DNA of 36,709 nt from an uncultured Bacilli bacterium (GCA_947632595.1 CANRPY010000013.1:1-36709); one strand, 5' to 3'. Shown: positions 14,705 to 17,962, counted from the stretch's first letter. Notes: generated by a model not told the origin, from the sequence alone. A program made the numbers and translations.

Positions 14705-14998
14705 ATGGCAGGTGGAGTAATGATTAACGGACCTGAGTTAAACAAAACTGCAGAAAAAACAAGAGAAAATGCTGAAACTTTCAAAGAAAAGTATACAGCT
14801 ATTATGAACGAGGTAAAGGATAAAATCGTAGGTGACTTTACTCAAGATGGAAAAGCATGGACAGGAGTAAAAGCTCAACAATTCGTTGATAATGTTCAAG
14901 CAACAGAAGCAGATTTTATCGCTGCATACAACAATATTAAAAAAGCAGCAGACACATTAGATAGTCACGTTCAAGTTTGGACAAATTTCGATGCTTAG
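14705..14998 (+). CDS. WXG100 family protein (97 aa, ESAT-6-like)
   Basis: This is a 97-residue two-helix protein with a clear central W-x-G (AWTGVKAQQF), the defining turn of the WXG100 superfamily secreted by type VII systems. It has no signal peptide. The start at ATG 14705 follows AAAGGTGGTGA; an upstream in-frame GTG falls inside that site. No obvious Y-x-x-x-D/E secretion tail is visible; the end is HVQVWTNFDA. It is followed 29 bases later by another 97-residue WXG-like gene, so a heterodimer is likely. No secretion ATPase is in the window. Confidence 0.82.
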   Translation: MAGGVMINGPELNKTAEKTRENAETFKEKYTAIMNEVKDKIVGDFTQDGKAWTGVKAQQFVDNVQATEADFIAAYNNIKKAADTLDSHVQVWTNFDA

Positions 14999-15027
14999 AA
15001 AAATAATATAGTAAAGGAGAGATGAAT

Positions 15028-15321
15028 ATGGCAGTAACAGCTTACATTGATTATAATAAAATGATCGCTTTAAGTGATGAAGTTGCAAGAATTGGTAGTG
15101 AGATTACTACACTTTTTGAAACTGAAATTTTAGGAAACAGATACAATGAAGTACAAGCCGCTTATAACGGTGAAGCTGCAGAAGCATATGCCGCAGAAGT
15201 AAAAAGTAGTATTACAAAAGTTGAACAAGATATTCAAAAACTTGTTGATGATATTAAAACAGAAGCTAATACACAAAAACAAGCTTGGGAAAATCAAGAC
15301 AGAACTGCAGCAAACGCATAG
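15028..15321 (+). CDS. WXG100-like protein (97 aa)
   Basis: This has the same length as its upstream neighbour. The turn reads AYNGEAAEAYAAEV, with Tyr-Asn-Gly in place of Trp-x-Gly, a common variant in WXG100 partners. Both flanks are amphipathic helices. The ATG at 15028 is preferred to the one at 15022 because the GGAGAG ribosome binding site would be too close to the latter. It probably dimerises with the first protein. A long RNA hairpin separates it from the larger genes downstream, possibly uncoupling their expression levels. Confidence 0.75.
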   Translation: MAVTAYIDYNKMIALSDEVARIGSEITTLFETEILGNRYNEVQAAYNGEAAEAYAAEVKSSITKVEQDIQKLVDDIKTEANTQKQAWENQDRTAANA

Positions 15322-15331
15322 AGAATATTAT

Positions 15332-15390
15332 AGAAATTACAATTGTAATTTCTTATTAGTGTGGATTAGTTCATAATCCCTACTAATAAG
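15332..15390 (+). promoter_or_regulatory. Intercistronic palindrome and 17-bp hairpin
   Basis: A perfect 22-bp palindrome (15332-15353) runs into a second inverted repeat. In the second, CTTATTAGT (15352-15360) pairs with ACTAATAAG (15382-15390). The stem continues through a G-T wobble and one mismatch into GGATTA/TAATCC, closing on the loop GTTCA. The two structures share 15352-15353. No T run follows, so it is not a standard terminator; a role in messenger processing or stability is likelier. Confidence 0.75.
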
Positions 15391-15413
15391 GAATTAAAGA
15401 AAGGAGTAATATT

Positions 15414-16181
15414 ATGAATGGTGAAGGTGGAACAACATTAGCAAACTTTGAAGCAGGAGTAAATGGCGATTTTACAGGGTGTGATCCTCTTACAGAAGAT
15501 TGGATATATATCGGTAAACAAACAGAAATTATTAATGATTACACAACAGACTCTGCAAATAAAGCAGAAAATGTATCTTCAGACATAGAATCTGATAAAG
15601 CCAGAGTCGTTGAAACAGAACTATTAGTTCAAGGGGAAAATGGTCAACAGGCTCAAACGAATATAGTGGATGCAAAACAAAATTTGGATGAATTAAAACA
15701 AACTATGAATTCCATTAGAAATGATAGTGGTTTCAGAGCAAAAATGGTTAAATTTAATGATAACCTAGAAAAGGCAAAAAAAGAAAAATATAGAGATTAC
15801 CTTCGAGGCAAATGTGATGAGTTTAACGATATGAAAAAGATCACAGCATACTGGTATTACGATATGGATCCCAATCATGGCGATGCATGTGAAAGATATT
15901 ATCAGCTTTCTGCAAGTGAATTGAAAAGTCAGTCAGTTCCCCAATTAGGAATGTCAAATGATAATACCAAAAATGTTATAAATTACGAGTATGACAGTAT
16001 TTGGTGTGATAGATTTATAAAATCGTGGGATACATTCTTAGACATGCAAAACGATACAATTTATAAAAATTTAAAAGACAGAGAATCAAAATATGGAATA
16101 GATTTTGGGCTTGAATCTATAGTAGGATTGAAAAAATATATTGATAACCCAGAAGGCTTTAGACCAGAAAATACATATTAA
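15414..16181 (+). CDS. Hypothetical protein of the WXG100 operon (255 aa)
   Basis: This 255-residue soluble protein is not recognised. It begins with a Gly-rich stretch and GCDPLTEDWIYIGKQ. The centre (60-150) is helical and charged, and the C-terminal part is rich in Tyr, Trp and Asp (AYWYYDMDPNHGDACERYY; SIWCDRFIKSW). It has no signal peptide or membrane segment. AAAGGAG precedes the ATG. It ends 14 bases before the 588-residue gene and shares its transcript, so a role as partner, chaperone or co-substrate of that protein is a reasonable guess only. Confidence 0.68.
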   Translation: MNGEGGTTLANFEAGVNGDFTGCDPLTEDWIYIGKQTEIINDYTTDSANKAENVSSDIESDKARVVETELLVQGENGQQAQTNIVDAKQNLDELKQTMNSIRNDSGFRAKMVKFNDNLEKAKKEKYRDYLRGKCDEFNDMKKITAYWYYDMDPNHGDACERYYQLSASELKSQSVPQLGMSNDNTKNVINYEYDSIWCDRFIKSWDTFLDMQNDTIYKNLKDRESKYGIDFGLESIVGLKKYIDNPEGFRPENTY

Positions 16182-16195
16182 GGGAGGTGAACACT

Positions 16196-17962
16196 GTGTC
16201 ATCTGTAAACTATGAAGTAATGCAACAAGTGATAGAAGATCTTGGTGAAAAAATCACAGAAACTCAACAAATCAATAATAATTTAGATAACATGTTAAAC
16301 GAACTTGACCCTAGAGTAGGAGAATTCTTGAAGTCAAGTCATGGTATAGAAGAACAACAGGGAAAGGTTGATGCTGCAAAAACGGATATTGCAAATTATC
16401 AAAACTGGTTGGAAGCGGCAGTTCAAAAAGTAAAGGATACAGACAGCAAACTTGCTGGAGATACTTCACTTGGAACATCCAATATAAATGGTATTGGAGC
16501 TGGAGGAACAGGTGTAGGTGCAGTAGTAGGTGGAGGTTATCAAGGATTTGGTACAGATGTTGATGACGGAAAAACAGATACAGAAAGTGTTACAAAAACC
16601 GAAGACTACTTCATTAACCCAGAGGATTTAAAAAATCTTTCTGCCGAGGCAAAAGAACAACTTCGAAATATGTTAAAACAACTAGGATATACGGATGAAG
16701 AAATTGAAAAGATATTAAATGGTGAAGTAGGAATTCCTCCTGAAGATTATGAAGAATTAAAAGCTCTTATAGAAAAATTGAAAGAAAAGAATCCAGATGT
16801 TGCAGAAGAACTAGAAGACATTTTGGATATTGAAGATCCATTCCCAGATGATGAAAAAGGACCTGGTACCGTTGATGATGGTGATAATGATAATACAGAT
16901 GGAGATGGCCTAGATCACGGTGACAATGAAAATATCACTCAACCAGATGATAACATTGATTCAGAAAATGGAAACGGAAATGGAGATAACGGAAATGATT
17001 CTAATAATATAAACGGTGGCGATAATCAAAATGGAGGAAATCAATTAGACGAGTCCAAGACAGAAACAGGAACAAGTATTGGAGGTTCTGTTGTAGGTGT
17101 AGGAGGAACCGTTGGAGAAGGTGGAAAAGATACATCAGAAGTAGGCAACGCTGCTGCCACATCCGCAAAAGATGGACTTGGCAAAGGAATAGATTCCATT
17201 ATGTCTGCCATTGGAAAAGGAGCTGCTAAACTAACAGGAGGAGTTACTCCATATAGTGGCGGAAATGGAACAGTATCTGGTTCAGCTATCAATAGTGCCT
17301 CTGCAGGAATTATTGCCGCTGCAAGCTTAGCTGCAGGAGGATCTGCTGCAGGTGGAGGATTATTACTTGGTAAAAAATTAAGTACAATAAGATTTACCCC
17401 AGAAGATTGGGAATCATTAGGAGAAGATTACCAAGGAATTATCGAGAAATTAATGATAACCGTTGGATTTACAGACGAAGAAAGAGAAACTTTCAAAACA
17501 TCCAACTTCAAGATTGCTACTAGTGAATTAAAAGAACATGTTAAGAAAATCGATAAAGCAACGGAAAATAGTACCGATTGTGAAGAGGAATTATTAAAAC
17601 AATATGGATTCTCTATGATCGATGAAAATGGTAAAGTAATAGATTACTTACTATTTATTACAATGATTGTCGATGGTAAGAATTCAATTGATGAATTTAA
17701 TATGTACAATATTATTAACCAACATCTAGAAAATGTTAACGAATCAGACTTTATCTATGCTGGAATCTCTATGGAAGATTACATAGATAATGAAGAAGAA
17801 GAGGAAGAAATCAAGATTGCAAATGATCCAACAGAAGAACAACAAGAAAGTCCAGAAGAAAAAGAAGAAGAGACTTCATCAAATGAGTCAGAAGAATCTT
17901 CAACTTCTGTATCCACTGGTTTAGATAAAGAATGGTTAAAAGGTATTGGAATAGACGACTAA
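16196..17962 (+). CDS. Large low-complexity protein with helical N-terminus, candidate type VII substrate
   Basis: This 588-residue protein starts at GTG after AGGGAGGTGA; another in-frame GTG lies inside that site. Residues 1-90 form a WXG100/LXG-like helical hairpin without W-x-G. A Gly-rich linker follows, then a helical segment at about 130-215 (GYTDEEIEKIL, AEELEDILDIED). Next come an Asp/Asn/Gly-rich low-complexity stretch (220-290) and a Gly/Ala hydrophobic stretch ending SLAAGGSAAGGGLLLGKK (about 370-390). A helical C-terminal domain and an acidic Glu/Ser tail follow. There is no signal peptide and no recognised enzymatic motif. The small WXG100 genes upstream suggest type VII secretion; effector activity is unproven. 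Confidence 0.65.
   Translation: MSSVNYEVMQQVIEDLGEKITETQQINNNLDNMLNELDPRVGEFLKSSHGIEEQQGKVDAAKTDIANYQNWLEAAVQKVKDTDSKLAGDTSLGTSNINGIGAGGTGVGAVVGGGYQGFGTDVDDGKTDTESVTKTEDYFINPEDLKNLSAEAKEQLRNMLKQLGYTDEEIEKILNGEVGIPPEDYEELKALIEKLKEKNPDVAEELEDILDIEDPFPDDEKGPGTVDDGDNDNTDGDGLDHGDNENITQPDDNIDSENGNGNGDNGNDSNNINGGDNQNGGNQLDESKTETGTSIGGSVVGVGGTVGEGGKDTSEVGNAAATSAKDGLGKGIDSIMSAIGKGAAKLTGGVTPYSGGNGTVSGSAINSASAGIIAAASLAAGGSAAGGGLLLGKKLSTIRFTPEDWESLGEDYQGIIEKLMITVGFTDEERETFKTSNFKIATSELKEHVKKIDKATENSTDCEEELLKQYGFSMIDENGKVIDYLLFITMIVDGKNSIDEFNMYNIINQHLENVNESDFIYAGISMEDYIDNEEEEEEIKIANDPTEEQQESPEEKEEETSSNESEESSTSVSTGLDKEWLKGIGIDD

What the first reader, a model, noticed from the sequence alone, without database searches (positions are those of the whole stretch)
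14705..17962. Uncharacterised WXG100 operon with a large candidate substrate
Two 97-residue WXG100-like proteins are followed by unknowns of 255 and 588 residues. The latter has a helical N-terminus like LXG-type substrates, a long Asp/Asn/Gly linker, a Gly/Ala hydrophobic zipper-like segment and an acidic tail, but no recognisable enzymatic toxin domain. A membrane-active or structural extracellular product is possible. No immunity protein is evident: prfB follows after the terminator. This is the best candidate in the window for an undescribed system.
Basis: partly seen in the sequence, partly recalled or inferred. Interest (0 to 1): 0.68.

Follow-up and report, generated by a model that had tools for sequence, protein, structure and literature searches.

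The report
Four-gene type VII secretion cassette with RNA
In one genus of gut Bacilli, two small WXG100-type proteins travel genetically with a helical partner and a membrane-segment protein whose back half is conserved and front half is not, and a previously uncatalogued, structure-conserved RNA hairpin sits between them; it is probably a type VII secretion cargo module rather than an ordinary toxin, and its function is untested.

Summary
The four genes are real and co-inherited. In 39 genomes of the genus, the 588-aa family occurs in 17, the 255-aa family in 14 (all within those 17), and EssC in 38. Both small proteins are WXG100-like; the first ends in a conserved Wxx[FY][DE] motif (10/12 relatives, 0/279 other short ORFs), like known T7 export signals. 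The 588-aa protein has a WXG-like hairpin, an Asp/Asn/Gly linker, a Gly/Ala segment and two homologous helical domains (hhalign 98.9%). It is the reverse of a polymorphic toxin: between sister genomes the N-terminal hairpin keeps 21% identity while segment plus C-domain keep 85%. No immunity gene recurs. Best reading: a T7-exported, three-partner complex whose membrane-inserting cargo is displayed rather than toxic, with the RNA uncoupling WXG from cargo expression. Export, topology and RNA function are inferred. New variant of a known kind.

The parts
14705..14998 (+). WXG-A: 97-aa WXG100-like protein, AWTG hinge, C-terminal WTNFD (Wxx[FY][DE]) putative T7 export signal
   Evidence: ORF; invariant W52, G54, W92 over 12 relatives; motif 10/12 vs 0/279 background; 4/12 relatives hit PF06013 at E<=0.01
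15028..15321 (+). WXG-B: 97-aa WXG100-family protein with YNG in place of WxG, no export motif
   Evidence: TIGR03930 E=1.1e-5 and PF06013 E=3.7e-4, both below curated cut-off; 10/12 relatives hit PF06013, best 5.4e-9
15331..15403 (+). Conserved intergenic RNA element
   Evidence: Model R1; 14/39 genus genomes, one + strand copy each, all between WXG-B and the next gene; not in Rfam
15346..15396 (+). P2 hairpin, arms 15346-15368 and 15374-15396 (23 positions, one mismatch)
   Evidence: MFE z -5.8; 97.3% of cells paired, 9 pairs with two-sided changes, 0/500 shuffles
15332..15353 (+). P1 hairpin AGAAATTAC/GTAATTTCT, mutually exclusive with the lower part of P2
   Evidence: 97.8% of cells paired but no two-sided change in P1 itself; alternative fold energies 0.5-5 kcal/mol apart
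15414..16181 (+). Mid protein, 255 aa, helical, C-terminal RPENTY (RPxDT-like motif)
   Evidence: Family A2 in 14/39 genomes, all with the 588-aa family; AF2 model poor, pLDDT 46
16196..17962 (+). Cargo protein, 588 aa
   Evidence: Family A3 in 17/39 genus genomes
16196..16480 (+). Cargo residues 1-95: WXG-like helical hairpin, fast evolving
   Evidence: AF2 pLDDT about 70; Z 8.9 to EsxA:EsxB 4lws among many helical bundles; 21% identity between sisters
16601..16831 (+). Cargo residues 136-212: helical unit D1
   Evidence: AF2 pLDDT about 90; homologous to C-domain
16832..17182 (+). Asp/Asn/Gly-rich linker, variable length
   Evidence: pLDDT about 30; alignment
17294..17383 (+). Gly/Ala hydrophobic segment followed by KK
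   Evidence: KD19 1.33-2.11 in 22 of 23 family members, the other being a contig-edge fragment
17384..17785 (+). C-domain, residues 397-530: D1-like unit plus extension
   Evidence: AF2 pLDDT about 86; hhalign 98.9% to D1 over 74 columns
17927..17959 (+). Conserved extreme C-terminal motif KEWLKGIGIDD after acidic tail

Best explanation
This is a type VII secretion substrate cassette. WXG-A (carrying the C-terminal Wxx[FY][DE] signal), WXG-B and the helical mid protein dock on the WXG-like hairpin of the 588-aa protein to form a pre-secretion complex that is handed to the core EssC. The cargo is a non-enzymatic, membrane-inserting protein: its Gly/Ala segment anchors it in a membrane, exposing a variable N-terminal head on an acidic linker, while the conserved C-domain and tail work on the other side. 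The hairpin RNA between WXG-B and mid splits the operon so that the WXG pair can be made in excess of the two large proteins, by transcript processing or stability or by local translational control. Shown: gene content, co-inheritance, motif conservation, domain duplication, evolutionary rates, RNA structure conservation. Inferred: export, complex formation, topology, non-toxicity, RNA function.
For: Every genome with mid also has cargo, mid normally directly upstream. The only genus genome without a detected EssC (G021) lacks the cassette; nine cassette genomes (e.g. G026, G010, G012, G023) have one EssC match, so the core machine would have to serve. WXG-A motif 10/12 vs 0/279, resembling the YxxxD/E and FxxxD export motifs (PMC9600955). 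Three small partners bound to the transport domain of one substrate is a known T7SSb arrangement (EsxBCD with EsaD, PMC10653861). Predicted WXG-like N-hairpin. N-hairpin 21% identity, dN/dS about 0.83, against segment plus C-domain 85%, about 0.13. In G026 and G010 the same C-half (66% identical) rides on an unrelated N-half beside four different WXG-type genes. RNA.
Against: No experiment. EssB/YukC is not found in the genome by HMM, so the machine is not a canonical T7SSb; EsaA and EssA were not tested. N-hairpin fold similarity is in the range that helical hairpins reach by chance. Hydropathy of the Gly/Ala segment is modest (1.3-2.1). WXG genes at the smpB site and in L038 deviate in kind or order. 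G006, G030 and G032 have cargo relatives without a detected mid.
Confidence: 0.5

Rival explanations
1. Pore-forming antibacterial toxin: the Gly/Ala glycine-zipper segment permeabilises neighbour membranes, as for the LXG toxin TelE or TspA, with the immunity gene elsewhere or immunity intrinsic.
For: Glycine-zipper LXG toxin TelE is a T7SSb precedent and its zipper is the conserved part of a diverse pool of variants (PMC10434224); zipper-like segment in 22 of 23 family members.
Against: No immunity-like gene recurs beside the cassettes: next genes are prfB, pnp-site or other housekeeping genes. The C-domain, not only the zipper, is conserved, and the variable part is the export head, the reverse of polymorphic toxins.
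Confidence: 0.25
2. Not secreted cargo but a membrane-anchored accessory of the T7SS: the C-domain is cytoplasmic (positive residues follow the segment) and acts as an adaptor between WXG substrates and the machine.
For: K/R in the 15 residues after the segment 66 vs 33 before, over 22 family members; strong C-domain conservation.
Against: Present in only 17 of 39 genomes although EssC is in 38; not encoded near essC; some relatives lack the full C-domain.
Confidence: 0.2
3. The hairpin is a DNA-level palindrome (operator or recombination site) rather than an RNA element.
For: Near-palindromic, so weaker minus-strand matches appear; sequence of the lower stem highly conserved.
Against: Mid-operon position, -2 to 38 nt after a stop codon and just before an SD in 14 genomes; one G-U pair kept as G-U in 7/10 and A-U in 3/10, and two-sided changes in 9 pairs; single copy per genome, not dispersed.
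Confidence: 0.12

Closest known systems
EsaD with EsxB, EsxC, EsxD (S. aureus T7SSb, PMC10653861)
   Same: Three small helical partners encoded upstream of one large substrate whose transport domain they bind
   Different: [quoted passage not shown] nothing of that kind is seen here; similarity is of layout, no sequence relation was found
LXG effector with Lap1/Lap2 (PMC9600955)
   Same: Two WXG-like partners upstream, one with an aromatic-xxx-acidic motif near its C-terminus
   Different: No LXG domain by Pfam in 20 relatives; partners match WXG100 rather than DUF3130/3958; C-half conserved, not polymorphic
TelE glycine-zipper LXG toxin and TipE (PMC10434224)
   Same: Gly-rich hydrophobic segment as a conserved feature
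   Different: TelE zipper is C-terminal and has a DUF5085 immunity protein; here a 130-aa conserved domain follows and no immunity gene recurs
esxB-esxA transcript processing in M. smegmatis (PMC11728522)
   Same: The mRNA of a WXG pair is separated from its operon neighbours by a cleavage site and is more abundant and stable
   Different: Different place in the operon, different phylum; there the stem-loop tested did not confer stability

Membership tests
WXG100 superfamily (WXG-A) | About 100 aa, helical hairpin with W-x-G hinge | tested here: met
   97 aa; W52 and G54 invariant in 12 relatives. Own Pfam match absent, 4/12 relatives match weakly
WXG100 superfamily (WXG-B) | Profile match to PF06013/TIGR03930 | tested here: inconclusive
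   E 3.7e-4 and 1.1e-5 but under curated cut-offs; 10/12 relatives match, best 5.4e-9; hinge is YxG
T7 C-terminal export signal | Aromatic-x3-acidic near the C-terminus of one partner | tested here: met
   Wxx[FY][DE] in 10/12 WXG-A vs 0/279; export itself not testable here
LXG polymorphic toxins | N-terminal LXG domain (PF04740) | tested here: not met
   No hit in 20 cargo relatives at E<=0.01
LXG polymorphic toxins | Conserved N-terminal trafficking part, variable C-terminal toxin part | tested here: not met
   Reverse pattern: 21% vs 85% identity;
LXG polymorphic toxins | Adjacent immunity gene | tested here: not met
   No recurring neighbour other than site-specific housekeeping genes
Canonical T7SSb machinery in the genome | EssC ATPase | tested here: met
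   Two EssC over cut-off
Canonical T7SSb machinery in the genome | EssB/YukC | tested here: not met
   No PF10140 match while the B. subtilis control rings; genome is a 95% complete draft
Canonical T7SSb machinery in the genome | EsaA and EssA | not tested
Glycine-zipper pore-forming toxins (TelE-like) | Membrane permeabilisation | not testable with these tools
   Needs an expression assay
Rfam families (RNA element) | Match at gathering score | tested here: not met
   None in the window; only sub-threshold miRNA hits at the element

The most novel reading that the evidence does not exclude
A T7-dependent surface-display system instead of a toxin system: a conserved membrane-anchored effector half is fitted with exchangeable, fast-evolving export/recognition heads and partner sets, and a dedicated RNA switch (mutually exclusive P1 and P2 stems) at the WXG/cargo boundary sets the ratio of carrier to cargo.
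Probability: 0.22. Interest if true: 0.78.

Novelty: new variant of a known kind. Interest (0 to 1): 0.56.

Why it matters
Most described T7SSb substrates with WXG-like partners are toxins with immunity proteins. A cassette with the reverse pattern of variation and no recurring immunity gene points to a different use of the pathway in gut Bacilli. The operon-internal RNA, single-copy and strictly co-inherited with the cassette, offers a direct handle on how the carrier-to-cargo ratio is set in WXG100 secretion.

Tried and rejected
LXG membership (no Pfam hit). Enzyme or toxin domain (only weak unrelated hits). PDB relatives by sequence (coiled-coil noise). Mid-protein model too poor to use (pLDDT 46). 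Phage origin: no viral contig relative. Wider spread: only marginal, mostly N-hairpin matches in 395 class and 386 family genomes; the RNA in none of 386 family genomes outside the genus, with stricter filters. Dispersed repeat: RNA element unique in own genome. Intrinsic terminator: no U-run follows the hairpin. First genome-contig scan with the 255-aa protein alone found nothing. My first count of the WXG-A motif in a notebook entry (11/12) was wrong; the script gives 10/12.

Full report
The window is contig C13 of a 1.40-Mb draft genome in 51 contigs. Related loci carry titles of Bacilli or Bacillales metagenome-assembled genomes; four of six are from ruminant guts (sheep, yak, goat). I call them WXG-A, WXG-B, mid and cargo.

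Co-inheritance. With profiles built from relatives, cargo is found in 17 of 39 genomes of the genus and mid in 14, all 14 among the 17. Gene order WXG-A, WXG-B, mid, cargo recurs beside a gltA-type gene and prfB in several genomes, and near rpsO/pnp or smc in others. In G005 and G022 a second mid-cargo pair lies upstream. In G012 and G023 mid and cargo are duplicated. Outside the genus only marginal matches, mostly to the N-hairpin, appear among 395 class and 386 family genomes.

Machine. The genome has two EssC ATPases over the family cut-off and 38 of 39 genus genomes have at least one. The exception, G021, has no cassette. Nine cassette genomes have a single EssC match. EssB/YukC was not found in the window's genome; T7SS variants lacking it are described (PMC11217815). 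EsaA and EssA were not tested.

WXG pair. WXG-A keeps the WxG hinge and an invariant C-terminal Trp in 12 of 12 relatives, and Wxx[FY][DE] within the last residues in 10 of 12 against 0 of 279 other short ORFs of the same loci. WXG-B keeps YxG and its relatives match PF06013 in 10 of 12 but it has no such motif. That is the usual pattern of one signal-bearing and one signal-less partner. The YxxxD/E and FxxxD export motifs are described in PMC9600955.

Cargo. AlphaFold2 with ten sequences gives a helical hairpin 6-94 (pLDDT about 70), a confident helical unit 140-210 (about 90), disorder to 394 and a confident C-domain 395-530 (about 86). Among aligned PDB chains the hairpin matches EsxA:EsxB, EsxA and EsxB structures at Z 7.5-8.9, mixed with unrelated helical bundles, so this is support and not proof. 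The unit at 136-212 and the C-domain are homologous: hhalign probability 98.9, 74 columns. A Gly/Ala hydrophobic segment occurs in 22 of 23 family members, the exception being a contig-edge fragment; Lys/Arg are twice as common after it as before it (66 to 33). Many members end in KEWLxGIGID or close variants after an acidic tail; in pnp-site members the same motif runs into a second hydrophobic stretch.

Direction of variation. Between the sister loci of G008 and G003, flanking gltA and ftsE have dN 0.02 and 0.01, while the cargo hairpin has 21% identity (dN 0.79, dS 0.95) and mid dN 0.63, dS 1.07. The cargo segment plus C-domain has 85% identity (dN 0.09, dS 0.69). The dS values are high, so ratios are rough. 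In G026 and G010 a cargo with a 66%-identical C-domain and an N-half without clear similarity sits with four other WXG-type genes and an NlpC/P60 gene. Polymorphic toxins vary at the other end. No neighbour gene recurs that could be an immunity gene.

The RNA element. All ten intergenic stretches first compared between WXG-B and the next gene fold into a long hairpin (z -2.2 to -7.5). On a plain MAFFT alignment 97.3% of cells are paired and 9 of 22 pairs show changes on both sides; none of 500 shuffles reaches these values and slid controls drop to 35-59% paired. A model built from these ten finds 14 of 39 genomes, one plus-strand element each, including four not used for building (G004, G010, G015, G028; 60-79 bits). 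The weaker minus-strand matches are the same sites read backwards. All 14 begin between -2 and 38 nt after the WXG-B stop and, where the next ORF was called (13 of 14), end 4-35 nt before its start, next to its Shine-Dalgarno. The element is unique in the window's genome, absent from Rfam, and not at the other WXG operons of the genome that I fetched. A short 5' hairpin P1 competes with the lower stem. Where an alternative differing from the minimum could be evaluated (eight elements) the two folds lie 0.5-5 kcal/mol apart, and in two more the P1 form is itself the minimum. P1 shows no two-sided change, so a switch is only a possibility. No U-run follows, so an intrinsic terminator is unlikely. 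Separation of a WXG pair's transcript from its operon is known in M. smegmatis, though a stem-loop tested there did not stabilise it (PMC11728522).

Conclusion. The most economical account is a T7 substrate cassette with three partners and one membrane-inserting cargo, comparable in layout to EsxBCD-EsaD (PMC10653861), but with a conserved non-enzymatic C-half and an operon-internal RNA. That the cargo is displayed and not toxic is inferred from the pattern of variation and the missing immunity gene; a TelE-like pore (PMC10434224) remains the main rival.

Noticed in passing
L036:8097-9425 (G000 C4): A 442-aa protein with an ELLD/NlpC-like C-terminal domain sits beside two WXG100-type genes, suggesting a T7-linked peptidoglycan hydrolase.
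   Followed up: partly
L035:10151-11029 (G000 C14): A 292-aa protein with a Phage_lysozyme2 domain lies just downstream of the genome's best WXG100 match (C14:16860-17105), another possible T7-linked wall hydrolase.
   Followed up: no
L034 (G000 C38): A second essC lies with an EsaB-like gene, a 153-aa protein with a weak LXG match and several about 100-aa proteins.
   Followed up: no
L037 and L039 (G026 C2, G010 C8): Cargo paralogs near smpB and RNase R genes with four WXG-type genes and an NlpC/P60 gene.
   Followed up: partly
L053 (G006 C2): A distant cargo relative sits next to a PASTA-type Ser/Thr kinase, a PP2C phosphatase and an FHA-ABC2 transporter fusion.
   Followed up: no
L033:4959-6966 (G000 C1): An Abi_2-like gene and a trypsin/PDZ protease gene lie near the core essC.
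   Followed up: no
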